Shown here one piece after another: positions 7,400-28,796 of a stretch of DNA of 38,034 bases. Source of the DNA: Bacteroidota bacterium (GTDB lineage Bacteria > Bacteroidota > Bacteroidia > Chitinophagales > LD1); contig CANJZE010000029.1 of assembly GCA_947479455.1 (NCBI GenBank), positions 1 through 38,034 of the forward strand, written 5' to 3'. The notes under the pieces were generated by a model. It was not told the origin of the DNA. It worked only from the letters and a program-made list of their open reading frames with translations, and did not search any database. Every line of letters begins with the position of its first letter. The stretch's first letter is position 1. Both the position numbers and the translations under genes were made by a program.

Positions 7400-7487
7400 C
7401 ATAAGAAATAATGTTTCGCCCAGGGTCGTGAAACACAGTCTCTGCGAGACAAGTAACAAAAACCAAATGTTCAAATAATTTCACCTC

Positions 7488-7850: not shown

Positions 7851-7866
7851 ACCAGCTAAATATATA

Positions 7867-8154: not shown

Positions 8155-8209
8155 AATCATTCACAATAAATAATCATTCAAATTTTTCAATCACTTAAAA
8201 TCAAACAAA

Positions 8210-9285: not shown

Positions 9286-9599
9286 CTTTGCTTATGGCTG
9301 TTGTATTCCGTGTTAGAGACACACTCCAATAGTAAAGACTACACGTTCAATATAAGGGTAAATACCCTATTATATAGAGAATAATAGAGGAAAAGAGGGA
9401 AATTAGGGAAATTTCAAAAAAAAGCTGCTGCGGTTCCTGATAGAATACCAGCAAAAATTCCATCAGCGTTTGATTTTGACTATTTCTTGACAATGCTCAA
9501 ATGCGGCTGCTGTTTTCGATTTTGGTAGTTTTATTCTCTTCTAACTGCAACATTTCCCAATCGTTTTCAACTATCCATAGCATTCCCTACATTCGCCCC
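9286..9599. other. Intergenic region before metal operon, with short palindrome
   Basis: No convincing gene. AGGGTAAATACCCT at 9355-9368 is a perfect 6-bp inverted repeat around AA, set in A/T-rich flanks that extend the symmetry loosely (ATA...TAT). It is followed by purine-rich AGAGGAAAAGAGGG. It could be an operator for the downstream metal efflux genes. Frame fragments around 9420-9520 have no start and are not called. Confidence 0.4.
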
Positions 9600-9908
9600 A
9601 TGAAATTTTTCGCTTTCATCTTTGCTTTCTACATACTCAGCATTTCTACAATGCCGTGTAATGATGTGCATGATGGAGCAAAGAGTTCTATTTCTACTGT
9701 TGAACAAGCACAAGACCACCACGAAAGCGACAATGATATTTGTTCTCCGTTTTGTATTTGTTCGTGTTGTCAGGGTTTTGTGGCGATGACTTCTTTTGCT
9801 GATATAACACCGGTTACTTTCACTTTTACTACGGGGTTTGCACACTACACCGAAAAATTTTTCTCTTCATCTTTTGCCGCTATCTGGCAACCGCCACGGT
9901 TAGGTTAA
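9600..9908 (+). CDS. DUF6660-like Cys/His-rich small exported protein
   Basis: The 102-residue protein starts at ATG 9600; an upstream in-frame start at 9501 would add 33 residues before a clear signal-type N-terminus (MKFFAFIFAFYILSISTMPC), so the later start is preferred. After the hydrophobic segment comes a His/Asp/Cys-rich stretch (NDVHDG, QDHHESDNDICSPFCICSCC) and a C-terminus ending FAAIWQPPRLG. This layout (short N-terminal signal, HH and CSPFC.C.CC cluster, IWQPP end) matches the DUF6660 family, which I recall lying directly before CusA/CzcA pumps in Bacteroidota. The cluster could bind metal in the periplasm; that role is inferred. First gene of the metal operon, 85 bases before the pump. 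Confidence 0.75.
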   Translation: MKFFAFIFAFYILSISTMPCNDVHDGAKSSISTVEQAQDHHESDNDICSPFCICSCCQGFVAMTSFADITPVTFTFTTGFAHYTEKFFSSSFAAIWQPPRLG

Positions 9909-9993
9909 TCACTTTCCTTTCTGCTTTTAATAATCTGCGATAGTGTTTATCGTGGGTTCGTTATTTTCTGATTAACCTTTTCAAAAGTGTAAA

Positions 9994-14292: not shown

Positions 14293-14304
14293 AATCACAG
14301 CATC

Positions 14305-15456: not shown

Positions 15457-15486
15457 AATTTTCATCTTCATTTAAAATTTCACAGC

Positions 15487-16119
15487 ATGGGAAATCAAGA
15501 CCGTAAAAACCATTGGGAGAAAATTTATCAGACAAAAGATTTGAAGGATGTAAGTTGGTATCAACCCACACCGACCACATCACTCGAATTTGTGAAGCAG
15601 TTCGACTTGCCACTTAATGCTAAAATTATTGACGTGGGTGGAGGTGACAGTTTGTTCGTTGACCATTTGCTTGAATTGGGTTTTACAGATGTTACAGTGC
15701 TTGATATTTCCGAAGTAGCATTGGAAAAAGCAAAACAGCGTCTTGGTAATAACGCGCACAAAGTAAAATGGATTATGGCTGATGCTGCTAACTTCAAACC
15801 AACCGAACAATACGATTTCTGGCACGACCGAGCGGCATTTCATTTTCTTACTAACGAGCAAGACATCAACAATTACATCAATACTATTCAGCATTTTATT
15901 AAGCCCAATGCAATTTTGGTCGTTGGCACTTTTTCTGAGCAAGCACCTAAAAAATGCAGCGGTATAGAAATAAAACAATACAGTGAAACCTCTATGACGA
16001 ACCGACTCCAAAATTTCTTCGAAAAAATTAAGTGTATCTCTGTTGACCACGTTACACCCTTCAACACCATTCAGAATTTTATCTTTTGTAGTTTCAGAAG
16101 AATAGCAAACCCAATATGA
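15487..16119 (+). CDS. Class I SAM-dependent methyltransferase in metal operon
   Basis: 210 residues, cytosolic. Early HWEKIYQTKDLKDVSWYQP matches a subgroup of small class I methyltransferases. Motif I is IIDVGGGDS (47-55), the acidic motif II is VTVLDIS (~69-75), followed by IMADAANF (motif III-like) and FWHDRAAFHFLT (motif IV region). C-terminal CSGIEIKQYS is also typical for the subgroup. The substrate is not known; thiol or metalloid methylation is possible in a metal operon but not shown. It starts 30 bases after the adaptor and ends in an ATGA overlap with the next gene, so it is a genuine operon member and not part of the downstream restriction system. Confidence 0.85.
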   Translation: MGNQDRKNHWEKIYQTKDLKDVSWYQPTPTTSLEFVKQFDLPLNAKIIDVGGGDSLFVDHLLELGFTDVTVLDISEVALEKAKQRLGNNAHKVKWIMADAANFKPTEQYDFWHDRAAFHFLTNEQDINNYINTIQHFIKPNAILVVGTFSEQAPKKCSGIEIKQYSETSMTNRLQNFFEKIKCISVDHVTPFNTIQNFIFCSFRRIANPI

Positions 16120-16742
16120 TACATCTCATTTTTAGCAGCATTCTTCTCAGCATCATTCACGCATTCATTCCTAATCATTGGCTGCCGTTGGTAGCTATTG
16201 GTAAAGCAGAACGGTGGAGTAACAGAACGACACTTCTCTCCACCGCCTTAGCTGGCTTCGCTCATATTGCAAGCACAATTCTCATTGGTATTCTGATTGG
16301 TTGGGCAGGTTACTCGCTTTCGACCTCATATAGCTGGATAAGCAGTTTAGTCGCTCCGGCAATTCTTATTGGCTTAGGTTTATTTTATGTGCTTCGCTTT
16401 TTCTTTCACCGCGCACATGCACACGACCATTTTAAAAATGTAACAGCGGGTAAAACTTCTTACACAGCAATCATTATTTCGCTTTCTATCAGTATGTTCT
16501 TTTCCCCTTGCATCGAGTTAGAGAGTTACTATTTCACGGCAGGAATTTTCGGTTGGTTCGGCATTATCGCGGTATCATTTGTCTATCTTATAGTTACTGT
16601 TTCCGCAATGGTGGTTTTGGTTTGGCTTGCGCTTAAGGGAATTCAAAACATCAATTTTAAATGGCTGGAAAAATATGAGAAGCTGATTATCGGTGGCGTT
16701 TTAATAGCAGTCGGCTTGTTCACTTTCTTTATCAAACTCTGA
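16116..16742 (+). CDS. Polytopic membrane protein with His-rich loop, possible metal transporter
   Basis: 208 residues with about six predicted TM helices. TM1 carries HAFIPNH (15-21), reminiscent of the H(x)5H-like first-helix motif in NicO/RcnA, UreH and related nickel/cobalt permeases. A cytosolic-type loop has HRAHAHDH (98-105), and a later helix has SPCIELESYYF (130-140) with potentially metal-binding Cys/Glu. The Pro-Cys in SPCIE resembles the second conserved site of the same superfamily. Start overlaps the methyltransferase stop (ATGA); nine bases separate it from the P-type ATPase. Exporting or sensing a metal is inferred from motifs and context; family assignment is tentative. Confidence 0.7.
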   Translation: MIHLIFSSILLSIIHAFIPNHWLPLVAIGKAERWSNRTTLLSTALAGFAHIASTILIGILIGWAGYSLSTSYSWISSLVAPAILIGLGLFYVLRFFFHRAHAHDHFKNVTAGKTSYTAIIISLSISMFFSPCIELESYYFTAGIFGWFGIIAVSFVYLIVTVSAMVVLVWLALKGIQNINFKWLEKYEKLIIGGVLIAVGLFTFFIKL

Positions 16743-16751
16743 AAACAATAA

Positions 16752-18704
16752 ATGAAACTTCCCTTCCACGATAAAAAATTTCTCTTTCTCCTTTTTGCAA
16801 TTTCAATTGTAATTGCGTTAGAGATTCTCTCCATCATCGGCATTCACATCCCCATGCCTTACGCGCCTTACGTGTTCGCCACTTTTATTATTGGCATTGG
16901 TTATCCGGTAATATGGAGTGGATTAAAAGCACTTGTCAAATTCAATTTTAGCAGCATCAGTTTACTCATGCTCATTGCCGTTATCGGTGCATTTTATCTC
17001 GGTGAATATCCGGAAGCAGCAGTAGTAATTGTGTTGTATGTGTTAGGTGAAAGATTAGAAGACATAGGAATTGACAACAGCAAATCAGCATTAGATGAAC
17101 TCGTTTCTAAATCGCCAAAAACCGCTTTCGTAAAACAGAGCGCAACAGAAATTGGTATTGATAAAATTACAGTTGGCACAATCATTCAAGTAAAGCCCGG
17201 AGATTTAATTCCGCTTGACGGAAAAATAACTACCGGTGAAACAACTATTGATGAAGCCACCATCACGGGCGAACCAATTCCAAAAGACAAACACACAGGC
17301 GACAATGTATTTGCCGGAACACTCAACAAAAACGGTTTCATCGAAATAGAAACCACCAAACTTTCTATTGATACCACCTTCTCAAAAATAATCCGCCTAA
17401 CCTTCGAAGCCACCGCCAACAAATCGAACACACAAAATTTCATTCAGAAATTTTCAAAGTATTATACACCGTCCATCATTCTGCTTGCAGTTTTAATTTT
17501 TGTCATTCCTGTTTTCGTTTTGCATCTGCCTTTAGAAAAATGGCTGAATCAAGCCATCACCTTACTGGTAATCGCCTGTCCGTGCGCATTAGTAATTTCC
17601 ACACCGGTAGCCATTTATGCAGCCATTGGCAACGCATCTTCAAAAGGCGCATTGGTAAAAGGTGGAAAATACATTGAAGCATTGGCAACAATCAAAGCCA
17701 TTGCCTTAGACAAAACACGCACCATCACCTTTGGCAAACCAATCGTAAGCGATGTAATTCCGCTCAACGGAACATCAAAAGAAGAATTGCTGGCTTGTGC
17801 ATCAGGCGCAGAAGTTTTTTCAGAACACCCATTGGCAGAAGCCATCATTGCAGAATGTAAAAAAGAAGGTTACGAACCACACGCAGTAGAAAAATTCAAA
17901 AGCATAATGGGCAAAGGAGCAATCGCAAAGTGCTTAGTATGCGAAGACGAAACAATCTACGTTGGCAAATTGGAATTTATCAGAGAATACCAACCGGTAG
18001 AAGCAGAAGCAGAAAAAATTGTTGCACAACTTTCTGCACAGGGAAAAACAAGCGTAGTAGTTAGTTTCGGAAAAGGAGTTGCAGGAATCATCGGACTAAT
18101 GGACGAAATAAAACCCGATAGTGCGGCTGCACTAAAGGAATTAGAAACACTCAACATACAGCCGATAATGCTTACAGGCGACCACAGCAACGCAGCAAAA
18201 TTTGTAGCAGAGCAAGTTGGTATCAAAAAAATATTTGGCGATTTACTTCCCGAAAATAAATCGGAGAAAATAAAAGAATTGCTTTCGCAATACGGCACGG
18301 TAGCAATGGTAGGCGATGGAGTAAACGATTCACCTGCTTTAGCTCAGGCGACTGTTGGCATCGCAATGGGAGCAGCCGGTAGCGACAGTGCCATCGAAAC
18401 CGCCAACATTGCTCTCATGAACGATAAACTTTCACTCATCCCGTTTCTTATTCGACTTAGTAAAAGAACGCTCACCACAATAAAGTTCAACACCACAGGT
18501 GCAATCGGCATCAAACTATTATTCGTCACCCTCGCATTTCTTGGTTATAGCAACTTGGTCTTTGCGATAGCTGCCGATGTAGGAGTTACGTTGGTAGTAA
18601 TTCTGATTAGCTTAAATCTGATGCGATTTGAGACGGATAAAATCACAGTGCAGCCAAACTTTTCTTTACAAGCTGGAAAGAAAGAATGTTGTGATAATTG
18701 CTGA
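16752..18704 (+). CDS. Heavy-metal P1B-type ATPase (Zn/Cd/Co type)
   Basis: 650 residues, an inner-membrane ATP-driven metal exporter. Order: N-terminal TM helices with no HMA domain, actuator TGEPIPKDK (~174-182), TM6 motif ACPCALVIS with C276-P-C278, phosphorylation motif DKTRT with D320, SEHPLAEAI (the HP motif of P1B pumps), LTGDHSNAA and MVGDGVNDSPALAQATVGIAMG hinge. The C-terminus ends KKECCDNC, a small Cys cluster that may bind metal in place of the missing HMA domain. Oddity: the phosphorylation motif is DKTRTIT, with Arg323 where nearly all P-type ATPases have Gly. The codon is CGC and the context is intact, so it is not a frameshift. I believe similar DKTRT pumps exist in Bacteroidota. 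Last gene of the metal operon. Confidence 0.93.
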   Translation: MKLPFHDKKFLFLLFAISIVIALEILSIIGIHIPMPYAPYVFATFIIGIGYPVIWSGLKALVKFNFSSISLLMLIAVIGAFYLGEYPEAAVVIVLYVLGERLEDIGIDNSKSALDELVSKSPKTAFVKQSATEIGIDKITVGTIIQVKPGDLIPLDGKITTGETTIDEATITGEPIPKDKHTGDNVFAGTLNKNGFIEIETTKLSIDTTFSKIIRLTFEATANKSNTQNFIQKFSKYYTPSIILLAVLIFVIPVFVLHLPLEKWLNQAITLLVIACPCALVISTPVAIYAAIGNASSKGALVKGGKYIEALATIKAIALDKTRTITFGKPIVSDVIPLNGTSKEELLACASGAEVFSEHPLAEAIIAECKKEGYEPHAVEKFKSIMGKGAIAKCLVCEDETIYVGKLEFIREYQPVEAEAEKIVAQLSAQGKTSVVVSFGKGVAGIIGLMDEIKPDSAAALKELETLNIQPIMLTGDHSNAAKFVAEQVGIKKIFGDLLPENKSEKIKELLSQYGTVAMVGDGVNDSPALAQATVGIAMGAAGSDSAIETANIALMNDKLSLIPFLIRLSKRTLTTIKFNTTGAIGIKLLFVTLAFLGYSNLVFAIAADVGVTLVVILISLNLMRFETDKITVQPNFSLQAGKKECCDNC

Positions 18705-18830
18705 GAAAAACTAAGTTTTTATTTTGTTGCAAAGTCAATTTGTGGTTTATAGCTGATAATGTTCGTCTTTGTGGCACGCCTATTCTATCTTACTTTCAAG
18801 AGTTTTTGCCTTTGTGGCACACTGTTAGGT

Positions 18831-19505
18831 TTATGTGGAAGAAGGAATTAGTTGGAAATGTTTATGCACCATGCTCCGCATAAACCCAAATGCTTCCTTC
18901 ATTGAATTAAAGTTTTGTTCATTCCGTGCTTTGCCTTTCCAAATTGTAATTTTTTCTCTTGGCGATATGAATTGCATTTGAAAATTAAGTCGGTTTTCCT
19001 CTAACTCATCCGCAAACACAATATTCATTATGTGGGTTTCTCCTTCTCGCATCATTTTATCAAGTTTTTGTTCCGCTGTCGAAAAACTTTCAAGTGAATT
19101 GAAATAAAAATGGTCGTCCATAGTTTCCCACTTGCCGCCATATCGTTTTAAAAATTCCACAAAGGTCATTAGCTTTTGTGGACGAGGTTTAGCGGAGTTC
19201 CTATGGCTATTTTGTGGCGATGTTGGTTTGGGGCTTAATGCACTATTTCCCTTTCCGGCTTTGTTGCCGAGTTCTTGTGGGCACTTTTCGCAAATACTTT
19301 CCTTAATCGTAACCTCCTCTACTCCACAAACGCGGCAGAAATATTTACTTGAACCGTCCGCAAAGTTGATGGATACTAATTTTGGTTTTGCATAACCCTT
19401 TTGTATGGCATTCGATTTTGCCACTATAATAGCATCATCTGTATTTGTGGCGCGAACCATAGTGCCGTATGAATGAAATGATATGAAGTATTCGTCTTTG
19501 TTCAT
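18831..19505 (-). CDS. Uncharacterised zinc-ribbon-like protein, second gene of a coupled pair
   Basis: 224 residues. The N-terminal ~55 residues form an alpha/beta-looking region (YFISFHSYGTMVRATNTDDAIIVAKSNAIQ), followed by a Cys4 site C57-x2-C60-x11-C72-x2-C75 that looks like a zinc ribbon, a low-complexity linker (SALSPKPTSPQNSHRNSAKP), and a C-terminal domain from ~110 beginning LMTFVEFLKRYGGKW. Its end, SMKEAFGFMRSMVHKHFQL, resembles the end of the upstream partner (TATEVFTYIRSVTEKFFAL), so the two may share a domain. The ATG lies two bases after the partner stop (TAAGCATG), so they are coupled. No known family is recognised. The pair faces away from the type III restriction genes and sits between them and the metal operon. 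Confidence 0.75.
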   Translation of the reverse strand: MNKDEYFISFHSYGTMVRATNTDDAIIVAKSNAIQKGYAKPKLVSINFADGSSKYFCRVCGVEEVTIKESICEKCPQELGNKAGKGNSALSPKPTSPQNSHRNSAKPRPQKLMTFVEFLKRYGGKWETMDDHFYFNSLESFSTAEQKLDKMMREGETHIMNIVFADELEENRLNFQMQFISPREKITIWKGKARNEQNFNSMKEAFGFMRSMVHKHFQLIPSST

Positions 19506-19507
19506 GC

Positions 19508-20344
19508 TTACTTCTTTTTGCTGGTGACTTTGCGGCTTTCCTTTTTCAGCGCGAAGAATTTTTCAGTCACACTTCTTATGTATGTAAATACCTCTGTGGC
19601 TGTGTGGTATTGTCTTGGTGGAAAATCACTCCAGTTACATTCAATTTCTAATAGCGCGAAAGGATTACCGGTCTTGAGATTAAATATCAATTCAGAGCAT
19701 TCGGTGTCATCATTTATCAGGTCGTCAAATTCTTCGCGAAAAGAGATTGTAAAATCCAGTAACCCATCTCTTTCTCTTTTTGCAACAGTTTCTCTCTCGA
19801 AGTTTTTGTAGTCGTCAAAGGATTTCAAATCTCGTTCTTCTCCGAATACTTGCAATTCATGACCTTGCCGTAAAAACTCTTTGAAACTTTTCGGCTTACT
19901 TGTTTTTGTGCGAGGAGTTCTAATATCTACTTTGCCTTTTAGTTGCGGAATTTCCAACGCCATTTTTACATACTGACTGAACTCCACAATATCTCCTTCG
20001 CTTTGCGGATGGTTAAATCTATACTGGTGGAACTTTGTGGAATAGATATCGTTTTCGTCAAGTAACGCCTGAATATTTCCTTCAAAGAAAATTTCAGTTG
20101 CAGAAAGATAAAGTGTGAAATCAAATCGTTCAAGATTCGGCAACAAGGATTCTTGTATGCTTTCCTTTAAAGATTCGCTTGTTCCATATTCGTCAAATTC
20201 AATTACACACCGCAATGCTTTCAGATCGTTGTAGTCTGTATTTTTCAAAGCGGCAATTATTTTTTCCAATTTCTTGGAATGAAATAGTTGAAGTAGTTTA
20301 ATGATCCCTTCTTTTACTTTTTGGTCAATTTCCGTAAGAACCAT
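19508..20344 (-). CDS. Uncharacterised protein, first gene of the coupled pair
   Basis: 278 residues, no signal peptide or TM segment. The N-terminal half is helical and acidic (KVKEGIIKLLQLFHSKKLEK, SLKESIQESLLPNLERF). A linker rich in Lys/Thr/Ser (RTPRTKTSKPK, ~143-153) precedes a C-terminal domain starting SFKEFLRQGHELQVFGEERD and ending HTATEVFTYIRSVTEKFFAL. The layout linker-F.EFL-...-F.Y/F.I/MRS.T/VxKxF.AL is the same as in the downstream protein. A Lys-rich tail (KKESRKVTSKKK) could contact nucleic acid. I do not recognise either as a known defence or regulatory family. Translation of the downstream gene probably depends on this one. Confidence 0.75.
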   Translation of the reverse strand: MVLTEIDQKVKEGIIKLLQLFHSKKLEKIIAALKNTDYNDLKALRCVIEFDEYGTSESLKESIQESLLPNLERFDFTLYLSATEIFFEGNIQALLDENDIYSTKFHQYRFNHPQSEGDIVEFSQYVKMALEIPQLKGKVDIRTPRTKTSKPKSFKEFLRQGHELQVFGEERDLKSFDDYKNFERETVAKRERDGLLDFTISFREEFDDLINDDTECSELIFNLKTGNPFALLEIECNWSDFPPRQYHTATEVFTYIRSVTEKFFALKKESRKVTSKKK

Positions 20345-20754
20345 AGTTTATGTGGTTTTATTTTCCGTGAAGTTCGGGTCGGATGGTTTAGAAAATAAAC
20401 TGGACGTTGAACCTCAAAATGATTAACCCGACAGGAAGGAAAATAACAGAACAACCTCTTTGCGGATGCGCAACCGCTACTGGTTTCTAAAATCTCAATT
20501 TTCAGATTCGGGAAATCATTGTAACGCCAATGATTTTATGTATTGCAATTTGTTCTTAGAACAGAACTTTGACTTGCGACTGCAATATACACCCACATAG
20601 ACCTTGCTACAAATGTTTCGTGATATTTATTTTTTTGACTACCGTTTTCGTTCCGCAAAGATGTTTCAGAAATAAAATATTGTCCTACAATTCATCGTTG
20701 TGGCTTATGTGGATTCACTATTGCAGGTCTTTATGGCACTTTGTGGATACGCTC

Positions 20755-20783
20755 CAATTTTGCAAGCAGTGCTTGCAAAATTG
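20755..20783. repeat. Perfect 14-bp inverted repeat with one-base centre
   Basis: CAATTTTGCAAGCA and its exact reverse complement flank a single G at 20769. With a one-base spacer it fits a dimeric-protein binding site better than an RNA hairpin. It lies 340 bases upstream of mod and 410 bases upstream of the minus-strand pair. Confidence 0.7.
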
Positions 20784-20933
20784 TAAACTGTCTTTGCGGC
20801 TCACAATTTCGTTCTCTTATTTTTCCTTATTCGTCAATGCAGGAAACGCATATATTCGCTCACAACAAAAGCAGAATTTATAGATAAAATTTAAGAACTA
20901 AAGACATATAAGAATTTGCGTTAAGCTGATTCT

Positions 20934-21041
20934 CGTTACGAAAACTGGTAATTTTTACACACACGAGAGATAAAGCGAAACGCTCACGCAATGCGTGGGC
21001 TTTCCTTATTTCGTGTGTGGGCATACCAGTGCCTCGTAACG
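20934..21041. other. Multi-tier imperfect inverted repeat (structured DNA or RNA element)
   Basis: Three paired boxes in nested order: CGTTACGA (20934-20941) with TCGTAACG (21034-21041); ACTGGTA (20944-20950) with TACCAGT (21024-21030); CACACACGA (20958-20966) with TCGTGTGTG (21011-21019). Asymmetric internal loops of 2/3 and 7/4 bases separate them. Inside are AAAGC/GCTTT (20972-20976 with 20999-21003) and two tip hairpins, GCG-AAA-CGC and CACGC-AAT-GCGTG. Twenty-four base pairs in exact complement across the three outer boxes cannot be chance. It resembles sites that act as folded single strands or a structured RNA; it does not match the integron attC core consensus. Confidence 0.75.
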
Positions 21042-21065
21042 GATAGGTGCATTGTCCACGCAGAT

Positions 21066-21091
21066 TTTTTTGTGGCTGGTAACACAAAAAA
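21066..21091 (+). promoter_or_regulatory. Hairpin immediately upstream of mod start codon
   Basis: TTTTTTGTG (21066-21074) pairs exactly with CACAAAAAA (21083-21091) around the loop GCTGGTAA. The stem ends three bases before ATG 21095, exactly where a ribosome would bind, so it may limit translation of the methyltransferase. Read on the minus strand it could also be a weak terminator. Confidence 0.5.
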
Positions 21092-21094
21092 TAA

Positions 21095-22717
21095 ATGCCC
21101 TCACTACACTGGATAGGAAAAGATAAAGTTATCAATCATCACATGGACGTGCCATTTAGGGTGCTGGAACATAGTTATGGTTTTGACAATGGAACACAGT
21201 CAGCTACCGAAACAAAAAGCGGGAATAAAATAATTCACGGTGATAACCTTGAAGCATTAAAATCTTTGCTGCCCGAATACGAAGGGGAAATCAAGTGTAT
21301 ATACATAGACCCTCCTTACAACACTGGGAATGAAAATTGGGTTTACAACGACAATGTAAACGACCCGAAAATTAGAAAATGGTTAGGACAAGTTGTTGGC
21401 AAGGAAAGCGATGATTTAAGCAGACATGATAAGTGGTGCTGCATGATGTATCCCAGATTAAAGTTGCTACATAAACTTTTAGCTGATGATGGAGCAATTT
21501 TTATTTCCATTGATGATATTGAACTTTCCAATTTGAAATTGATAATGGATGAGATTTTCGGTGCTGGGAATTTCATTGAATATTTTTCTTGGCATAAGAC
21601 CTACTCACCTTCCAACCTTTCATATAAAAGCAAAAAATGTCTTGAGTATGTTTTATGCTACGAAAAGAAAAGAAATAACAAGAGGTATAAAGGGCTTTAC
21701 AAAGTTAATGAAGCCGACAACCCATTGATTAAAAGTAACAATCAAAAAAAAGTATTACGATTTCCTAAAGATTCAGTTGAAAGCACAATGGAAGAAGATT
21801 GCTTCTTTCAAGCGGGTAAGTATGGAACAAAAGTCAATGAAGTAGTTCTGCAAAATGATGTTTGGTTTAAAGATGGAAAGTTTAGTGATGACTTAATTCT
21901 TGAATCAAAATTTATCTGGACACAAGAGAATTTAGAAAACGAAATTGAAAGGAAAACCAAAATTATTTTCAAAGGAAAGTCTTTAGCACCTCGATATGAC
22001 AAAGCAACTTATGACCCAGAAGTTCCAAGAAATTTAGTTGATGCTAATGATTACGTTGGAACCACTGAAGAGGGAGGCGTCATTCTTAAAGAAATTTTCG
22101 GCAAGAAAATGTTTGATTACCCAAAGACACCCACTCTAATTCAATACTTGATAAATTTTATCAGCGATGAAAACTCCATTGTGCTTGACTCATTTTCTGG
22201 AAGCGGAACAACAGCACAGGCAGTATTGAATCTAAGCAAACGAGACGGCAAAAAGAGAAATTTCATTTTGATTGAAATGGAGGATTATGCAGAAACGATT
22301 ACAGCTGAAAGAGTAAAAAGGGTTATTAACGGATATAGCGACACCGAAGGCACGGGCGGTAGCTTTGATTTTTATGAAATAGGTGAGCCACTTTTCAATG
22401 AAGATGGAAATCTGAATGAAAATGTTGGAGTTGAAAAAATGCGGAACTACATTTTTTACACTGAAACAAAAAAGCCTCTTGCTGAAAGCAAACACAAAGA
22501 CAACAAGCACTTTTTAAGCAAGTTCAACGACACCGCTTATTATTTCAACTACCAAGCAGACAAAGCAACAACGTTGAATCATGCCTTTTTAAGCACCATG
22601 AAAACAAAAGCCGAACAATATGTAATATATGCTGACAAGTGTTTACTCACAAAAGAGTTTATGGCAAAAAACAATATCGTTTTCAAAAAAATACCGAGAG
22701 ACATTACAAAATTCTAA
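21095..22717 (+). CDS. mod: Type III restriction-modification methyltransferase (Mod)
   Basis: 540 residues. It should methylate adenine N6 in a short asymmetric site and give the type III complex its specificity. The N-terminus MPSLHWIGKDKVINHHMDVPFRVL is typical for the family and fixes the start at 21095. The catalytic motif DPPY is at 72-75 (YIDPPYNTGNENWVYND), and the SAM-binding motif DSFSGSGTTAQAV begins at residue 365, so catalytic motif precedes SAM motif, the beta-class order of type III Mod proteins. The central part between them (about 130-320) is the target-recognition region and shows KKCLEYVLCYEKK, typical of beta-class. No simple-sequence repeat suggests phase variation. The res gene starts 9 bases after the stop. 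Preceded by the structured elements described separately. Confidence 0.95.
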   Translation: MPSLHWIGKDKVINHHMDVPFRVLEHSYGFDNGTQSATETKSGNKIIHGDNLEALKSLLPEYEGEIKCIYIDPPYNTGNENWVYNDNVNDPKIRKWLGQVVGKESDDLSRHDKWCCMMYPRLKLLHKLLADDGAIFISIDDIELSNLKLIMDEIFGAGNFIEYFSWHKTYSPSNLSYKSKKCLEYVLCYEKKRNNKRYKGLYKVNEADNPLIKSNNQKKVLRFPKDSVESTMEEDCFFQAGKYGTKVNEVVLQNDVWFKDGKFSDDLILESKFIWTQENLENEIERKTKIIFKGKSLAPRYDKATYDPEVPRNLVDANDYVGTTEEGGVILKEIFGKKMFDYPKTPTLIQYLINFISDENSIVLDSFSGSGTTAQAVLNLSKRDGKKRNFILIEMEDYAETITAERVKRVINGYSDTEGTGGSFDFYEIGEPLFNEDGNLNENVGVEKMRNYIFYTETKKPLAESKHKDNKHFLSKFNDTAYYFNYQADKATTLNHAFLSTMKTKAEQYVIYADKCLLTKEFMAKNNIVFKKIPRDITKF

Positions 22718-22726
22718 GCCAGCAAA

Positions 22727-25354
22727 ATGGAATTAAAGAAATATCAGCAGGGTGTAATCACAGACCTTGACCGCTTTTTAGAAAACGTGCAACAAACAAA
22801 AGTGGTTAAAGAGGCGTTCAATAATTTTTGGGTAAAACATCCCAAAACTCCTTTGCATCCTTATCCCGGCAAAGCCATTGAACCATACAAAGACAATGTA
22901 ACTCGTGTTCCGCATATCTGTATAAAAGTTCCAACGGCTGGTGGTAAAACTTTTATCGCTTGCAATGCACTCAAAACAATTTTTGATGCCTTTGATTACG
23001 ACAGACCAAAAGCAGTTTTGTGGCTTGTTCCTTCAATCACAATTTTAGACCAAACAATTAAATGCCTTAAAGATTCAACGCACCCTTACCGACAAAAAAT
23101 AAATTCTCATTTCGGGAATAAGGTTGAAGTGTATGATAAAGAAACTTTGTTGCAGGGAGCAGGATTTAATTCGTCATCAGTTAAGGAACAGTTGAGCATA
23201 ATGATTTTCAGTTTCGACAGTTTGAGAGCAAAGAATAAAGAAGACAGAAAAGTATTTCAGGATAATGGGCGACTGCAATCGTTTGAAAACTTAATTGCAA
23301 AAGAAGATGAACTCACACTGGGCGCAGTAATTAAATATCTCAACCCTGTAGTAGTGGTTGATGAAAGTCACAATGCCGAGAGCGAGTTAAGTGTAGAAAT
23401 GCTGAAAGAAGTAAACCCCTGTTTCATTTTGGATTTAACGGCAACACCGCGAAACAACAGCAACATCATAAGTTTTGTGGATGCAATGGAATTGAAGAAA
23501 GATAACATGGTAAAACTACCAGTGATAGTTTACAATCATCAAGATAAAACAGAGGTGATAAATTCTTCTTTGCAGTTGCAGCGTAAATTAGAATTGCAAG
23601 CAATAGAAGACGAAAAAAACGGTGGGAAATATATACGCCCTATTGTTTTGTTTCAGGCACAACCCAAAAACGGTAAAGATTTTTTAAACGATGACGAGGA
23701 AAAAACAAATGTTCAAAAACTTAAAGAGAAACTAATTGAACTTAAAATTCCGGCTGAACAGATTAAAATAAAAACAGCAAACATCAATGAGATAAAAGGC
23801 ATTGATTTAATGAGTAAGGATTGTGAAGTACGATATATCATTACGATAAACGCATTGAAAGAAGGTTGGGATTGCCCTTTTGCTTACATACTTGCTTCGC
23901 TTGCTGATAAAAGTTCGGCAGTAGATGTTGAACAGATTTTAGGAAGGGTTTTGCGTTTGCCTAACGTGAGTAAGAATGCAACTCCGTTCTTGAATTTCAG
24001 TTATGTGATTACCGCATCGGCAAAGTTCATGGATACACTGCAAAACATTGTAAAGGGATTGAACAAAGCAGGGTTTAGCGATAAGGATTACAAATTGGCA
24101 GATGAATTGCAATTAGAAGAAGCGAAAAAAGCGGATGTAGTTACGCAACTTGAATTAACGCCAACAGATGAAACAGCAACAGTTGGAGAAGATATTACGG
24201 CAGATATTGACACAACACGAATTTTAGATTTAACCAATACAGAAACTCCAAAATCTGTAGAGCAAATTTTAGAACAGGCAACCATTCAAAATACTGAATT
24301 AGAAAATAAAATTGCCGAAGCCGAAAACTCCAACGAAATACAACTGCCAAACGAATTAAACGACATGGTAAAAAAATATAGCATCAAGGAAATTTTCAAA
24401 GAACAAGCCGCACAAATTGTGATACCACAATTTTATTTAAAAATAGCGGCAATGGATTTATTCGGTGCAGAAGCCGAAGAAATTTTATTAGACAAAGAAA
24501 ATTTGTTGGAAGATTTTGCTCTGAGTAAAGCCGATACAAATATTTCTTTTGACAGTGTTACATCAGAGTTGTATGCAGTAGATTTAGACCCTACAAAGAA
24601 AGACCACACTCCAACTTTTGTAAAAGTTGATGGCGATGTAAAAGAAAGAGTGCTGGCTTATATTCTTGACCCTGTCCGTAAAGACAGTAGAATTAAAAAC
24701 CTTACAAGTAGAATTTTAGCAATCATCGGAAATATGTATCCGATAGATGATAAGGAAATTGAAAAGTATGTGAATAGAATTTTAGAAGATTTTACGGATG
24801 AACAGTTCAAAGATTTTACCGACCACGAATACAGTTATGTGCGGAAAATTAAAGACAAAATAAATTCATTAGCAGCAGTAGCAGCCGAAAAAGCATTTCG
24901 CGATTTTTTAGACATTGACAAATTATATCTCAAACCTGTTTACACTCTACAACCGCAGATAACACCAAGCGAAACTTCAAAGGACATAACAAAATCACTC
25001 TACGAAAAAGAAGGTGATATGAATGGCTTTGAAGAAATGGTTATAAATGAAATTGCAAACCTGCCTACAATTTCTTTTTGGACAAGAAACATTGAGCGAA
25101 AAGGATTTTGTTTAAACGGCTTCATCAATCACTATCCCGATTTTATTATTCAAACCAAAAGCGGCAAAACAATTTTGCTGGAAACTAAAGGCGATGACAG
25201 AGATAACAGCGATAGCGAAATGAAAATCCGTTTAGGTGCTGCATGGGCAAATAAAGCAGGAAGCAACTTCAAATATTTTATGGTGTTTGATAAAAAAGAA
25301 GTTGCAGGCGCGCATAAGTTAGACGAGTTCATAAAACTCATGCAACAGATTTAG
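22727..25354 (+). CDS. res: Type III restriction endonuclease subunit (Res)
   Basis: 875 residues, the ATP-dependent translocase/nuclease that cuts after meeting a second unmodified site, acting with Mod. Superfamily 2 helicase motifs: Walker A VPTAGGKTF with K74, Q-tip-like LVPSITILDQT (~105-115), motif II VVDESHN with D212-E-S-H215, motif III LTATPRN (~236-242), motif VI region VEQILGRVLRLP. The C-terminal nuclease is PD-(D/E)xK: YPDF with D805, then LLETKGDD with E819 and K821. All key residues are present, so the enzyme looks functional. Length is slightly below the ~970 residues of EcoP1I-like Res but normal for environmental type III systems. The gene pair ends at a strong hairpin (25421-25467). 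Confidence 0.95.
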   Translation: MELKKYQQGVITDLDRFLENVQQTKVVKEAFNNFWVKHPKTPLHPYPGKAIEPYKDNVTRVPHICIKVPTAGGKTFIACNALKTIFDAFDYDRPKAVLWLVPSITILDQTIKCLKDSTHPYRQKINSHFGNKVEVYDKETLLQGAGFNSSSVKEQLSIMIFSFDSLRAKNKEDRKVFQDNGRLQSFENLIAKEDELTLGAVIKYLNPVVVVDESHNAESELSVEMLKEVNPCFILDLTATPRNNSNIISFVDAMELKKDNMVKLPVIVYNHQDKTEVINSSLQLQRKLELQAIEDEKNGGKYIRPIVLFQAQPKNGKDFLNDDEEKTNVQKLKEKLIELKIPAEQIKIKTANINEIKGIDLMSKDCEVRYIITINALKEGWDCPFAYILASLADKSSAVDVEQILGRVLRLPNVSKNATPFLNFSYVITASAKFMDTLQNIVKGLNKAGFSDKDYKLADELQLEEAKKADVVTQLELTPTDETATVGEDITADIDTTRILDLTNTETPKSVEQILEQATIQNTELENKIAEAENSNEIQLPNELNDMVKKYSIKEIFKEQAAQIVIPQFYLKIAAMDLFGAEAEEILLDKENLLEDFALSKADTNISFDSVTSELYAVDLDPTKKDHTPTFVKVDGDVKERVLAYILDPVRKDSRIKNLTSRILAIIGNMYPIDDKEIEKYVNRILEDFTDEQFKDFTDHEYSYVRKIKDKINSLAAVAAEKAFRDFLDIDKLYLKPVYTLQPQITPSETSKDITKSLYEKEGDMNGFEEMVINEIANLPTISFWTRNIERKGFCLNGFINHYPDFIIQTKSGKTILLETKGDDRDNSDSEMKIRLGAAWANKAGSNFKYFMVFDKKEVAGAHKLDEFIKLMQQI

Positions 25355-25420
25355 CCACTGGGAAATTTAGAACTGTAAAAGAATAATCTCAATTTTATTG
25401 GAGAAATCAATCGAAAATAA

Positions 25421-25467
25421 ATTCTATAAAACGGCAGTAAATCGTGTTTACTGCCGTTTTATAGAAT
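25421..25467. terminator. Perfect 21-bp stem-loop after res
   Basis: The arms 25421-25441 and 25447-25467 are exact reverse complements around the loop TCGTG. The arm centre is ACGGCAGT and the ends are A/T-rich, so the hairpin carries its own T-rich 3' strand in both directions. It lies 66 bases after the res stop and likely ends the mod-res transcript. An uninterrupted 21-bp match is long for a simple terminator. Confidence 0.75.
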
Positions 25468-25556
25468 GTTAATTCCCGCCAAATGGTCTGTATAAAAATC
25501 TATCTCGTTGAAAATGACCATGATAAAAAAATATTAAATACTATTTGGTATTTAAA

Positions 25557-25587
25557 TTTGCAAATTAAATACATAATTGTATTTTTG
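25557..25587 (+). promoter_or_regulatory. Near-consensus Bacteroidota promoter before HTH gene
   Basis: TTTG at 25557-25560 is followed after exactly 19 bases by TATTTTTG at 25580-25587, matching TTTG-N19-TAnnTTTG. Transcription would begin about 4-8 bases downstream, on or next to the GTG at 25592. This is the best promoter in the window. Confidence 0.65.
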
Positions 25588-25591
25588 TGAC

Positions 25592-26575
25592 GTGATAGCA
25601 CAAAACCATTCTCTTGATTCCTTACTTAATCCTAAAACCAGCGATGATTTGTTTGAGTTAAGGAATAAGTTGAAGGCAAAGTGCTTCACTCTATCGGATA
25701 CCCAACTCACCCTTAAACAATTTATTGATTGGCGAAAAGTAGGACTTGTGCCACCGACTTTAAATAGTTATGAAAAAGGAAAGAGAAATAGAATTGAACT
25801 AAATGTTTTTGAATACATCTGGTTGGATATGCTACTTGACTTAAAGGCACTTGGCATTGCAAATCTTGCATTAAAGAAAATTACAGAATGGGCGTGGGAA
25901 AAAATCGATATAAAGGAAACAATCGGTAAGATGCTTTCACCAGAAATTCTTGCAGCGGCAATTCCAAATGTAGAAGAAAAGGATAAAATAATTCAGAGCC
26001 TTCTATCGGCTAACCAATCGGATTTAGAAGATTTTGCGCTGTCGGTTCAAGGCGAACCTGTTTATCCTTTTGAAACCTTGTTCCTTCAAGTATTCACAAC
26101 AAATGCTGACTTTAAAATTGTTTATAGATACGATGGCATCATAACTGGAGTTTGGGAGCATCAGACTTTTCGAGATTCAGATACGAATGAAAAAGTAAGT
26201 GCTCTTGGAGTATATAATACTCAATTTGCACCTCACCCCCATTTCTCATTTGGTGTCGCTAAATATCTTTCTAAGTTCTTATGCGATGACAAGAAGCTGT
26301 CATTCCTAAAGCCGTTAGGAATGATTGATGAGGATGAACAAGAGCTACTTGAACTAATTAGACGAGGAAATCTAAAGCAACTTATCGTAAAATTTGATGC
26401 TGGTAGCGGAAGAATGAGTGGTTACGAACTTCATAAGGATAGGAATCTGACACTCGAAGAATCAAACCAGATAAGAAAGATTCTCGCCCTCAAAGATTAC
26501 GAGAGCATTACATATAAATCTAAAAGCAATAAGACAGTTTATCTTGAGAAAACAACTCAAAAAAGATTTTCATAG
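25592..26575 (+). CDS. MerR-like HTH protein of unknown function
   Basis: 327 residues from GTG 25592; a TTG at 25577 is the only earlier start and lies within the promoter box, so GTG is preferred. The N-terminal third has a MerR-type winged helix: LTLKQFIDWRKVGLVPPTLN, KGKRNRIELNVFEYIWLDMLLDLKALGI, LALKKITEW. The rest (about 105-327) is not a known MerR effector domain; it is mixed alpha/beta with YPFETLFLQVFTTNADFKIVYRYDG and a C-terminal KSKSNKTVYLEKTTQK. It may regulate the restriction system or the recombinase, being between them on the same strand. The start is likely leaderless or nearly so. Confidence 0.75.
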   Translation: MIAQNHSLDSLLNPKTSDDLFELRNKLKAKCFTLSDTQLTLKQFIDWRKVGLVPPTLNSYEKGKRNRIELNVFEYIWLDMLLDLKALGIANLALKKITEWAWEKIDIKETIGKMLSPEILAAAIPNVEEKDKIIQSLLSANQSDLEDFALSVQGEPVYPFETLFLQVFTTNADFKIVYRYDGIITGVWEHQTFRDSDTNEKVSALGVYNTQFAPHPHFSFGVAKYLSKFLCDDKKLSFLKPLGMIDEDEQELLELIRRGNLKQLIVKFDAGSGRMSGYELHKDRNLTLEESNQIRKILALKDYESITYKSKSNKTVYLEKTTQKRFS

Positions 26576-26580
26576 CTACT

Positions 26581-26628
26581 GGCATCCCCGGAGCAAAGGT
26601 TAAGATAGTGACTACATCGGCATCCCCG
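26581..26628. repeat. Direct repeat GGCATCCCCG
   Basis: The 10-mer occurs at 26581-26590 and 26619-26628, 38 bases apart, in the 78-base gap between the HTH gene and the 53-residue gene. It is GC-rich in an AT-rich setting. It may be a regulator or recombinase binding site. Confidence 0.4.
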
Positions 26629-26653
26629 ACCCCTCACACATCACTAAATCAAA

Positions 26654-26815
26654 ATGAACGCGAATGAAAAAAGTTATGAAATAACTATCGCTGACTTAAA
26701 AAAAGAAAACGGATTTGAAAACATCACAGATGATGAAGCAAACATTATCGTAAGACATTTGGTTAATTTCTGTGATGTGTTAGCGGCAATAATTCTTGAA
26801 TCTAAATTTATCTAA
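26654..26815 (+). CDS. 53-residue small protein preceding the recombinase
   Basis: Starts at ATG 26654 and ends with TAA one base before the recombinase ATG at 26817, so the two are translationally coupled. The product is MNANEKSYEITIADLKKENG followed by a helical C-terminal half (DDEANIIVRHLVNFCDVLAAIILESKFI). No signal peptide. Tight coupling and codon use argue for a real gene. I do not recognise it; a recombination directionality or regulatory role is only a guess from position. Confidence 0.65.
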   Translation: MNANEKSYEITIADLKKENGFENITDDEANIIVRHLVNFCDVLAAIILESKFI

Positions 26816-26816
26816 A

Positions 26817-28466
26817 ATGAAAAAGAACAAAAAAGAAATCTCAACTAATAACGAGAATGATTTAGACATATTCTCAAAATTTGACCAAAAGTCATACAGA
26901 AGAAAACCAGTTATCAAATCATCTGATGAACCGCCAGTAGGTGTTTCCTACACGCGAGTTTCATCCAAGGAACAGTATGACACAAATGGAAGTATTGATA
27001 CTCAAATCGAGATGGTAAGAAAATTATCGGAATCGCGCAAAATCCCAATAGTTGCGATATTTGGCGGCACGTTTGAATCTGCAAAGTCAGAGGAGAGGAA
27101 GGAGTTTCAAAGAATGATGACTTTCATTAGAAAATCCAAGCATAACATCAAGTATATTCTTGTTTCAGATATAGACCGATTTTCAAGAACAGGCGGAAAT
27201 GCAATATACATTGCAAGCCAATTACGTGCGAGCGGAATACAGATTTTAGCTGCTTCTTCTCCTTTTGACACTCTAAATCCCTCTGGAGCACTGCACCAAG
27301 ATATGCTGCTTCTGTTCTCCAGCTACGATAACCAAGTTCGGGCGCAAAAATGTGTTCGGGGAATGAAAGACAAGTATTTGAAAGGGTTATACTTCGGCAG
27401 ACCGCCACTTGGATATGAAGTAGTAAAAACAAATGACGGTTCCAAGATAGTCATTAACGATAAGGGCAGACTTCTTGCAAAAGCGTTTAGGTGGAAAGCC
27501 GAAGGCAAATCCATCATTGAAATTGCCAAGCGTCTGAAAAAACTTGGACTTGTCTTAACCGATAAACGGTTAAGCTGGGCATTTAGAAATGTATTCTATT
27601 GTGGTTTGCTACGAAACAATTTACTTGGTGATACTGTATTGGAGGGCAAAAACTGGGAACCAATAGTTTCAAAGAAATTGTTTTTAGAAGTAAACGAAGT
27701 GCTTGAAGAAGGCAGGGAAAAATTTCAAAACCACAAAGAGGATAACAACATACCGCTGCGCCATATGGTAGGGTGCGAGAAGTGTAAAAAGCCGATGACG
27801 GGTTATGTAGTAAAGGCAAAGGGGTTATTTTATTACAAATGCAACACCAAAGGCTGCGGCAGCAATACGAGCGCAAAGGCAATGCACTCCCAGTTCGTTT
27901 TGCTACTTGACAGTTTTCAGCCAGACAAAAAATTCATTCCGCTTATTCGGAAGCAAATGCAACTCTCGTTTATCAAAATAGATAGCTCACTTGCACAGAA
28001 GCAAGAAGATTTTTCCGTCCGCGAAAAAGAAATTAAAGAAAGGATAGAAAAATTAGAAGAGCGCTTCGTTATGCAACAAATCAGTGACGAACTTTTTCAA
28101 AAGTTTCATAAAAAATTTAAGGCGGAGCTAATGAAAATTCGGTCAGAAATGAAGTATGATAGCAATGGTTTATCGAACCTTGAAAAATTGGTAGAAAAAA
28201 GTATCAATCTTTCGCAGAACATAAGCCAGTATTGGGTTTCAGCATCCTTCTATCAAAAGCAGCAACTGCAAAAAGCCATTTTTCCTGATAAAATATACTA
28301 CCAGAAGAAAAAAGGAACTTATCGAACCACAAAAGTGAATATTATACTGCTTGAAATCACACGACTGGCGCGGGTTTTAGAGGATTCTAAACAAAAAAGT
28401 CCCTCGAAAAAATCGAGGGACTCTCATTGGGTGGACCTGGTGGGGATCGAACCCACGTCCGGATAA
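26817..28466 (+). CDS. Large serine recombinase (resolvase-recombinase-zinc ribbon)
   Basis: 549 residues from ATG 26817. N-terminal resolvase domain: VGVSYTRVSSKEQ with catalytic Ser49, then DIDRFSRTGGNAIYIASQLR (the conserved Arg region) and LLFSSYDNQVRAQKCVRGMKDK. The recombinase domain follows (GRPPLGYEVVK), then a zinc-ribbon with C320-x2-C323 and a later CNTKGCGS pair, then a coiled coil (~395-440). It would mediate integration/excision or inversion. The last residues (about SHWVDLVGIEPTSG) are read through the tmRNA terminator and 34 bases into the ssrA 3' end on the opposite strand, a sign that the gene abuts an attachment site there. The natural C-terminus may be changed by integration. 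Confidence 0.92.
   Translation: MKKNKKEISTNNENDLDIFSKFDQKSYRRKPVIKSSDEPPVGVSYTRVSSKEQYDTNGSIDTQIEMVRKLSESRKIPIVAIFGGTFESAKSEERKEFQRMMTFIRKSKHNIKYILVSDIDRFSRTGGNAIYIASQLRASGIQILAASSPFDTLNPSGALHQDMLLLFSSYDNQVRAQKCVRGMKDKYLKGLYFGRPPLGYEVVKTNDGSKIVINDKGRLLAKAFRWKAEGKSIIEIAKRLKKLGLVLTDKRLSWAFRNVFYCGLLRNNLLGDTVLEGKNWEPIVSKKLFLEVNEVLEEGREKFQNHKEDNNIPLRHMVGCEKCKKPMTGYVVKAKGLFYYKCNTKGCGSNTSAKAMHSQFVLLLDSFQPDKKFIPLIRKQMQLSFIKIDSSLAQKQEDFSVREKEIKERIEKLEERFVMQQISDELFQKFHKKFKAELMKIRSEMKYDSNGLSNLEKLVEKSINLSQNISQYWVSASFYQKQQLQKAIFPDKIYYQKKKGTYRTTKVNIILLEITRLARVLEDSKQKSPSKKSRDSHWVDLVGIEPTSG
28393..28422 (-). terminator. Intrinsic terminator of ssrA
   Basis: On the minus strand AGTCCCTCGA and TCGAGGGACT form a perfect 10-bp stem with a five-T loop, followed by five T. 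It lies 10 bases after the tmRNA 3' end and inside the 3' coding part of the convergent recombinase gene. Confidence 0.85.
28433..28466. other. Putative attachment site at ssrA 3' end
   Basis: This 34-base segment is shared by the tmRNA T-arm/acceptor and the recombinase C-terminus. Integrase genes that end in a tRNA or tmRNA 3' end usually mark the att site of their element. No matching direct repeat is found elsewhere in the window, so the other end lies outside or has diverged. Confidence 0.4.
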
Positions 28467-28796
28467 GTTGACGATAAACTTTCTACATGCGTATCTACTT
28501 ATTGATTTTCGTAAACAAGCCGCATAAGCAGACCTCCAACTTGTTTCTTACATCCGTTGTTCATACATCGTAAAGGGGATGAAACTTTACGAGTACGTTA
28601 CCAGGTTTTGTTTGTCAGTGCGCTGTGTATGGTACCTCAAGCGCAGGACAATTGGTTGTTAATCTCTAAGATTAAGCAGCCATAGCGTATGAATATTCGC
28701 CATTTAAAACTGTTTGTGAGATGGATTAACGTGGTATCAAACACCCACGGCACGCGGGTTTACCTGCAAGGCTTCCCGTCAATTCCAATCAGGCCC
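28433..28796 (-). ncRNA. ssrA: tmRNA
   Basis: The 364-base RNA runs on the minus strand. The 5' end GGGCCTG (28796-28790) pairs with CAGGTCC (28439-28433) as the 7-bp acceptor stem with one G-U. The T-arm reads GTGGG-TTCGATC-CCCAC. The tag frame ends AAT GGC GAA TAT TCA TAC GCT ATG GCT GCT TAA, giving NGEYSYAMAA, which has the usual -A(L/M)AA degradation end. The base triplet after the discriminator A is CCC, so a full CCA is not encoded. The RNA rescues stalled ribosomes with SmpB. A terminator follows it and a TACATTTG box lies about 75 bases upstream. The 3' end overlaps the recombinase gene. Confidence 0.95.

What the first reader, a model, noticed from the sequence alone, without database searches (positions are those of the whole stretch)
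28433..28466. Serine recombinase gene runs into the 3' end of ssrA: probable att site of an integrated element
The recombinase reads on the plus strand through the tmRNA terminator and stops inside the tmRNA T-arm. Elements that use tRNA/tmRNA as att sites leave the integrase at that border. Most known ssrA-integrated elements use tyrosine recombinases, so a large serine recombinase in ssrA of a Bacteroidota would be unusual. The accessory genes to its left (type III RM, unknown pair, perhaps the metal operon) would then be cargo.
Basis: partly seen in the sequence, partly recalled or inferred. Interest (0 to 1): 0.7.

Follow-up and report, generated by a model that had tools for sequence, protein, structure and literature searches.

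The report
Integrase gene split by its integration
A 20-kb mobile DNA block in this bacterium sits at the end of the tmRNA gene; its enzyme appears to recognise a sequence common to tRNA-like genes, and insertion cuts a tail off the enzyme's own gene and puts a few host-encoded residues in its place.

Summary
In detail: a large serine recombinase ORF (26796-28466) runs antisense into the 3' end of ssrA. It is the integrase of a 20.5-kb element (7933-28435). A same-genus genome (G115) has the empty site: one alignment with the joined window flanks spans the junction.

This is not peculiar to ssrA. Most relatives examined in this order, and many across the phylum, run the same way into tRNA genes of many isotypes. 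The T-loop motif TCGAAC lies 16 nt from the core in the tRNA gene but 21 nt at the element's far end (19 sites in 15 of 40 elements; control 0). That matches the published 5-bp zinc-ribbon shift between attB and attP.

attP lies inside the recombinase gene. At the far end the frame continues into a tail, roughly SNxFxxDLxxL (16 of 19 sites; background 7 of 286; pattern framed on part of these sites). Integration strands this tail. An intact tailed gene (G580) and 71%-identical integrated copies diverge at the core. The gene's 3' end also carries an antisense terminator for the tRNA.

Closest precedents: Dehalococcoides DsiB and archaeal 'suicidal' integrases. What losing the tail does is inferred.

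The parts
7933..28435 (.). integrated element, 20,498 bp from core to core
   Evidence: Empty site in G115 (L054) and G132 (L050): joined window flanks align across the junction, 83.6% over 1274 columns (60 gaps) and 90.4% over 418 columns
7933..7937 (.). att core GTGGA at the far (left) end; crossover dinucleotide inferred at offsets 2-3 (7935-7936)
   Evidence: 31-nt identity of L054 with window 7907-7937 ends here; symmetry of GTCC (-10) and GGA/GGAC (+12) motifs
7954..7959 (+). TCGAAC motif of the P' half-site, offset 21 from the core
   Evidence: 19 sites in 15 of 40 elements at offset 21, none at 21 in the reverse-complement control
7933..8154 (+). stranded native 3' end of the recombinase gene: 73 codons and stop, same reading frame as the recombinase (VEARYELSNFLQDLQRID...)
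   Evidence: tail pattern in other elements
7886..7932 (-). displaced native ssrA terminator
   Evidence: hairpin and T-run; a near-identical sequence directly follows ssrA in G115
26796..28466 (+). large serine recombinase as it reads in the integrated state; the last 11 codons (28431-28463) are encoded by ssrA
28389..28421 (-). replacement terminator for ssrA, coded antisense inside the recombinase gene
   Evidence: stem 13, MFE -22.1 kcal/mol; control windows average -5.1
28431..28435 (.). att core GTGGA at the ssrA (right) end
   Evidence: L054 is identical to the window from 28431 for 66 nt
28447..28452 (+). TCGAAC (antisense T-loop of tmRNA), offset 16 from the core: motif of the attB-derived half-site
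28430..28796 (-). ssrA (tmRNA), target gene, left complete
8431..9908 (+). cargo: unknown protein (8431-9285) and DUF6660 protein (9501-9908)
9994..18704 (+). cargo: metal efflux operon: CusA/CzcA pump fused to an OEP domain (1432 aa), HlyD-type protein, SAM methyltransferase, unknown 208 aa, heavy-metal P-type ATPase
18831..20344 (-). cargo: pair of unknown proteins (224 and 278 aa)
   Evidence: no family at E<=0.001 in Pfam, NCBIfam or PADLOC
21095..25354 (+). cargo: type III restriction-modification (Mod 21095-22717, Res 22727-25354)
25577..26575 (+). cargo: unknown protein, 332 aa
   Evidence: no family

Best explanation
This is a genomic island moved by a large serine recombinase that targets the 3' end of tRNA and tmRNA genes. 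Shown by sequence: the motif TCGAAC (the T-loop read antisense) is 16 bp from the core in the tRNA gene (attB) and 21 bp from it in the element's other half (attP). attP lies inside the 3' part of the recombinase gene. In the circle the gene would run across the core into its own tail (roughly SNxFxxDLxxL); on integration the tail stays at the far end and the gene instead runs into the tRNA-like gene, which supplies a variable number of codons and a stop. Just before the core the gene also encodes, antisense, a terminator that replaces the one displaced from the tRNA gene. Inferred: that TCGAAC is read by the zinc ribbon; that the full-length enzyme made from the circle carries out integration; and that loss of the tail makes the event self-limiting (weaker, less stable, or dependent on a directionality factor), so that the tail acts as a built-in state switch.
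For: Empty sites. Frame phase identical at 7933 and 28431. TCGAAC at offset 21: 19 sites, against at most 3 at any other offset from 6 to 45 and 0 in the control; the rule came from 3 of these sites, 16 are additional. Tail pattern 16 of 19 against 2 of 158 and 5 of 128 background TCGAAC sites read in the same frame, with synonymous codons (GAC CTC, GAT TTA, GAT TTG, GAC TTA) and one-codon length shifts. The pattern was framed on sites seen; of the 4 sites first seen, 3 have it. G580: intact 555-aa gene with tail VALTGQFSNHFINDLKILG and TCGAAC at 21; its 71%-identical relatives in G757 and G822 end in tRNA-Met with VAGTGLEPVTFGL; they diverge at the core. G822's stranded tail lies at its far end; G757's far end joins a decayed recombinase 3' end to the same kind of tail. 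Synteny supports the G252 far end: the gene next to tRNA-Phe in G325 matches 1.3 kb beyond it. Antisense terminator: mean MFE -20.0 against -5.1. 5-bp zinc-ribbon shift published (PMC3783163, passages).
Against: No far end was found for 25 of 40 elements within the 4.7-56 kb searched. Three of 19 sites lack the tail pattern, among them G043 Val, the best-scoring relative, whose tail is short (VEARYDLSNYFW). The G822/G757 tail (SNQFLVDYYKI) resembles it but fails the strict pattern. None of the IMG/VR loci held (best 80 of 115, 12 of 12, best 80 of 160 relatives) shows the pattern; one contig (L400) has TCGAAC at 21 but stops before it. The window tail (73 aa) is longer than the others and gave no other significant hit in 57 genomes. 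Seven of 52 loci end in no tRNA (less G047 Arg), nor does a second recombinase in G101. No circle was observed, and no effect of the tail was measured. The model of the full-length G580 protein has no confidence in the tail (pLDDT about 25).
Confidence: 0.87

Rival explanations
1. The sequence beyond the core is conserved as DNA (P' arm) and not as protein; the open frame is incidental.
For: The TCGAAC part behaves as a DNA motif. G043 Val keeps a P' sequence almost identical to the window's but stops soon after it, and L400 stops before it.
Against: The DL codons lie beyond the half-site, vary synonymously and shift by whole codons. 13 of 19 tails stop after 20-32 codons. An intact gene with the tail exists.
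Confidence: 0.12
2. The tRNA-encoded C-terminus (GIEP/GFEP) is the functional one, and the overlap is selected as protein.
For: Same frame in 40 elements.
Against: Its length runs from 1-2 to about 50 or more residues depending on the target. In G252, G202 and G140 His the ORF stops at the core. Four distant relatives use other frames (G091, G177 twice, G190). The residues follow from the T-loop. The end has low model confidence.
Confidence: 0.05
3. The overlap is accidental and the element, if any, is moved by another enzyme.
For: Only a 5-bp shared block.
Against: Empty site at the exact position; the family-wide overlap; no other integrase domain among the element's proteins that were scanned.
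Confidence: 0.02
4. The tail is removed without consequence: the gene simply tolerates a host-encoded end.
For: Catalytic, DNA-binding and coiled-coil parts are all upstream of the core. Tail length varies and 3 of 19 sites lack the pattern.
Against: The tail pattern recurs across divergent elements, which suggests that it is used in the circle.
Confidence: 0.35

Closest known systems
Dehalococcoides ssrA genomic islands with DsiB (PMC3146451; passages and section 5 read)
   Same: Large serine recombinase at the 3' end of ssrA; its 3' end always overlaps att without a clear stop of its own; tandem islands; the authors guessed that the gene may be fully functional only on the circle
   Different: Dehalococcoides; ssrA only; insertion inferred in the T-loop and 20-bp repeats (here the core is at the acceptor end and 5 bp); companion recombinase DsiA; they report DsiB alignments diverging in this part. 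Sequence relationship to the window protein not tested here.
Archaeal 'suicidal' (SSV-type) tyrosine integrases (PMC8371274; passages read)
   Same: att site inside the integrase gene; integration splits the gene
   Different: Tyrosine family; the split leaves two inactive parts, the C-terminal one with the catalytic domain. That review calls them exclusive to archaea. Here only the tail is cut off.
A118/LI, SPbeta and Bxb1-type phage serine integrases (PMC3783163, passages; PDB 4kis, 9dxh, 9iu2)
   Same: Domain layout; 5-bp shift of the zinc-ribbon motif between attB and attP
   Different: Their attP lies beside the gene and their targets are not tRNA T-loops (both recalled, not checked)
DLP12 integrase overlapping argU (recalled, nothing read)
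   Same: Integrase gene overlapping a tRNA
   Different: Tyrosine family
CcrB of SCC elements
   Same: Weak match, NF047343 E 7.9e-21
   Different: 74 bits against a cut-off of 900; target rlmH (recalled)

Membership tests
Large serine recombinase / serine integrase | Resolvase plus Recombinase domains | tested here: met
   PF00239 75 bits, PF07508 36.6 bits, both over cut-off
Large serine recombinase / serine integrase | conserved YxRVS serine, zinc ribbon and coiled coil | tested here: met
   S56 invariant in 17 sequences and Cys pairs in most of them; long helices 378-425 and 431-455 in the model; Foldseek matches to SPbeta and Bxb1 integrases, E<=1e-15 but TM 0.3-0.4 over the flexible whole
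Large serine recombinase / serine integrase | zinc-ribbon motif 5 bp further from the centre in attP than in attB | tested here: met
   offset 21 against 16; rule from PMC3783163. That TCGAAC is the zinc-ribbon motif is inferred from this agreement.
Large serine recombinase / serine integrase | catalysed recombination | not testable with these tools
   no experiment
tRNA/tmRNA genomic island | empty site in relatives, target gene left complete | tested here: met
   G115 and G132; ssrA complete
Dehalococcoides DsiB islands | companion small serine recombinase DsiA | tested here: not met
   no second resolvase domain among the 13 proteins of the element that were scanned; small ORFs were not scanned
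Dehalococcoides DsiB islands | insertion inside the T-loop | tested here: not met
   core at the acceptor end
Suicidal (SSV-type) integrases | att inside the integrase gene so that integration splits it | tested here: met
Suicidal (SSV-type) integrases | tyrosine recombinase | tested here: not met
   serine recombinase
CcrB (SCC) | NF047343 above curated cut-off | tested here: not met
   74.3 against 900 bits

The most novel reading that the evidence does not exclude
A bacterial, serine-family counterpart of the archaeal suicidal integrases, widespread in Bacteroidota: the recombinase gene contains its own attP, its conserved tail exists only in the circular form, and losing it on integration acts as a built-in directionality switch. 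One short stretch encodes protein, att site and a replacement terminator, and recognition of the common T-loop lets one family move between tRNA isotypes and ssrA.
Probability: 0.45. Interest if true: 0.88.

Novelty: new variant of a known kind. Interest (0 to 1): 0.76.

Why it matters
It offers an explanation of how a serine integrase can target tRNA genes in general: its half-site motif matches the T-loop. It gives a set of natural attB/attP halves with a common rule, and turns a 2011 speculation about DsiB into a testable model. A reading frame that changes its C-terminus with the state of the element would be a new kind of control for serine integrases, and recombinases with tRNA attB sites could be useful for inserting DNA into Bacteroidota. 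It warns annotators too: the '...GIEPxS' ends of these proteins are tRNA sequence.

Tried and rejected
Long direct repeat of the ssrA end elsewhere in the genome: none. Search for the window's tail as a protein in 57 genomes: only itself was significant, best other E 0.029. Mapping far ends of G250 ssrA and G140 Met by DNA or protein synteny with genus mates: none placed. For G252 Phe, synteny later agreed with the motif-based far end: a gene next to tRNA-Phe in G325 matches 1.3 kb beyond it, and the far-end flank matches G334 2.4 kb from tRNA-Phe. For G250 Lys synteny gave nothing clear. Repeats alone as far-end finder: clear only for G196 and G174 Arg. Circular forms: no relative covering 80% of the protein in phages and plasmids; one IMG/VR scan found nothing, three found relatives, none held with the tail pattern. 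Genome-contig scan: one distant relative. Structure of the tail: model uninformative. R. anatipestifer islands as precedent: tyrosine integrases (passages). The idea that the sequence left of the G043 Ser far end is a second recombinase: no similarity found, rejected. Not done: PHROGs scan, search for a directionality factor, comparison with the DsiB sequence.

Full report
OBSERVATION. The recombinase ORF, the complete ssrA and their antisense overlap are as described. The stop is about 36 nt inside the tmRNA 3' end, slightly past the T-arm. The 27-nt T-arm stretch occurs once in the genome at up to 3 mismatches, so there is no long second copy.

THE ELEMENT. A search for tmRNA in 30 genomes of the family gave loci with flanks. 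In G115 (L054, same genus) the sequence 3' of ssrA matches window 7029-7932 (77.5%) and the sequence 5' of ssrA matches 29039-30399 (82.3%). The last 31 nt of the G115 flank, core included, equal window 7907-7937, and G115 ssrA equals the window for 66 nt from 28431; the shared block is GTGGA. Joining window ...7937 to 28436... gives a sequence with one BLAST alignment to G115 that spans the junction (83.6% over 1274 columns, 60 gaps), and one to G132 (90.4% over 418 columns, about 50 nt of it left of the junction). The element is thus 20,498 bp from core to core. It holds a metal-efflux operon (CusA/CzcA pump fused to OEP, HlyD, P-type ATPase), a type III RM system, several unknown genes and the recombinase. 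The 13 proteins scanned showed no conjugation or phage family; smaller ORFs were not scanned and PHROGs was not used.

A FAMILY THAT ENDS IN tRNA GENES. The recombinase has matches at E<=1e-20 in 57 of 298 genomes of the order and at E<=1e-30 in 31 of 395 genomes of the phylum. Of the 94 places listed I examined 63: wide stretches around 52 (window included) and 11 short loci. In 44 of 52 the 3' end overlaps a tRNA or tmRNA antisense; in a 45th (G047 Arg) the ORF reads through a whole tRNA-Arg. The seven others are G140 C23 (40% identity) and six of 24-27%. Of the 11 short loci 8 overlap; the other 3 are cut by, or end within 69 bp of, a contig end. A second recombinase in G101, seen in passing, does not overlap. 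Of 22 new phylum loci 15 overlap by ARAGORN; of the other 7, one abuts a tRNA (L379), three have T-loop-like ends without a called tRNA (L356, L358, L363), one is the tailed gene L359, and two (L369, L371) have nothing. Targets include Val, Leu, Glu, Arg, Ser, Phe, Pro, Met, Asn, Lys, Ala and His tRNAs, and ssrA in G019, G250, G351 and G177 besides the window. In 40 elements the T-loop is in the same frame (...GIEP/GFEP), three of them stopping at the core; four distant ones use another frame.

THE ATT RULE. In the tRNA, TCGAAC starts 16 nt from the first core base. In three elements whose far end was known from an empty site or a long repeat (window, G196, G174 Arg) it starts at 21. I then scanned about 1.37 Mb upstream of 40 recombinases (these three included) for places with at least 4 nt identity to the tRNA end: TCGAAC at offset 21 occurs 19 times, at any other offset from 6 to 45 at most 3 times, and 0 times at 21 on the reverse strand. 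The 19 sites fall in 15 of 40 elements, some elements having two; in 25 no far end was seen in the stretch searched (4.7-56 kb). PMC3783163 (passages) reports the zinc-ribbon motif of attB shifted 5 bp toward the centre relative to attP; the numbers here agree. A second motif (GTCC at -10 in 17 of 40 P halves; GGA at +12 in 31 of 40 tRNA halves; GGAC at +12 in 5 of 19 P' halves and 4 of 40 tRNA halves) suggests a centre between offsets 2 and 3, in the acceptor stem. Left of 15 of 19 far ends stands a terminator-like hairpin, as expected for the displaced 3' flank of the tRNA gene; elsewhere in the recombinase genes 231 of 720 windows have one. Synteny agrees for G252: the gene next to tRNA-Phe in G325 matches 1.3 kb beyond the G252 far end.

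A GENE SPLIT BY INTEGRATION. The recombinase codon that begins at the core (28431) is in the same phase as the frame starting at 7933, which stays open for 73 codons. At the 19 sites chosen by DNA alone, the frame gives SN, 3 or 4 residues, then D/E and an aliphatic or F residue in 16 of 19. At other TCGAAC sites of the same regions read in the same frame it does so in 2 of 158 (forward) and 5 of 128 (reverse). SN is forced by TCGAAC; the rest is not. The pattern was framed after seeing sites, so those do not test it independently; of the 4 sites first seen (G043 Val, G043 Ser, G236 Leu, G130) 3 have it. Codons vary synonymously and spacing differs by whole codons. The strongest case is direct: G580 carries an uninterrupted 555-aa gene ending FDGSFS-VALTGQFSNHFINDLKILG with TCGAAC at 21 and no tRNA called. 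Two 71%-identical genes in G757 and G822 end VDGSSL/VDGSFL-VAGTGLEPVTFGL inside tRNA-Met, TCGAAC at 16. G822's tail, VAGNFEKSNQFLVDYYKI..., is stranded 11.7 kb away; in G757 a decayed recombinase 3' end is joined to the same tail 13.7 kb away. That tail resembles the others but fails the strict pattern. In G580 a second recombinase with tRNA-Met lies 27 kb downstream, so the intact gene probably sits at a tandem junction (inference).

A TERMINATOR IN THE CODING SEQUENCE. In the 62 nt before the core, the antisense strand has a terminator-like hairpin in 32 of 40 elements, against 231 of 720 windows elsewhere in the same genes; the mean folding energy of the 45 nt next to the core is -20.0 against -5.1 (sd 3.0) kcal/mol. 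The recombinase gene thus brings the tRNA gene a new terminator.

STRUCTURE. The model of the window protein has the layout of a serine integrase (mean pLDDT 81); residues 543-556 have pLDDT below 50. Foldseek finds SPbeta, Bxb1, phiC31 and A118 integrases with strong E-values but whole-chain TM-scores of 0.2-0.4, as domain positions differ. The model of the G580 protein does not resolve the tail.

MECHANISM. Shown by comparison of sequences: attP in the gene, the att rule, the swap of 3' ends, the terminator. Inferred: the tailed protein is the one that integrates, and the swap limits further action. The swapped-in host codons look arbitrary. How excision is driven is open; no directionality factor was sought.

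NOVELTY. The listings of searches showed no paper on serine integrases of Bacteroidota in tRNA genes, on T-loop recognition by a serine integrase, or on a conserved tail lost on integration. I saw titles and starts of abstracts there, and passages of seven papers (of PMC3146451 one section too); subscription papers are mostly not held, and island databases (TIGER/Islander) may contain such islands unremarked. PMC3146451 described the overlap for DsiB and guessed its meaning. PMC8371274 (passages) describes suicidal tyrosine integrases as archaeal only. PMC12884075 and PMC12424338 (passages) give general figures on integrases and tRNA sites. I rate this a new variant of a known kind.

Noticed in passing
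L042 (G103) and L057 (G137): Contigs end exactly at the ssrA 3' end in two same-genus genomes, as would be expected if insertion there is polymorphic in the sampled population.
   Followed up: no
L115 (G174), also G047 SerCGA, G125 Arg and G101 Ser: Two or three far-end halves stand one behind another at one tRNA gene, possible traces of repeated insertions.
   Followed up: partly
L086/L182 (G140:C23, about 310000): A recombinase whose 3' end meets only 14 nt like a tRNA-Arg end and then unrelated sequence, without TCGAAC at 21; not explained.
   Followed up: partly
L385, L397, L399 (IMG/VR): Relatives in viral contigs end in what look like partial tRNA 3' halves with TCGAAC at 16 and no tail; their crossover may lie elsewhere in the tRNA.
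   Followed up: no
G580:C19:1250594 (L380): A further tail (VIFTVQNSNQFMEDLKILNEV) begins with GTGAT like the end of tRNA-Lys, inside the tandem region.
   Followed up: no
window 9994-14292: Heavy-metal RND pump and outer-membrane efflux domain fused in one 1432-aa protein.
   Followed up: no
window 18831-20344, 25577-26575, 8431-9285: Cargo proteins without any match at E<=0.001 in Pfam, NCBIfam or PADLOC.
   Followed up: no
G177:C1 about 2536000 (L350): A distant serine recombinase also ends in ssrA, but in another reading frame.
   Followed up: no
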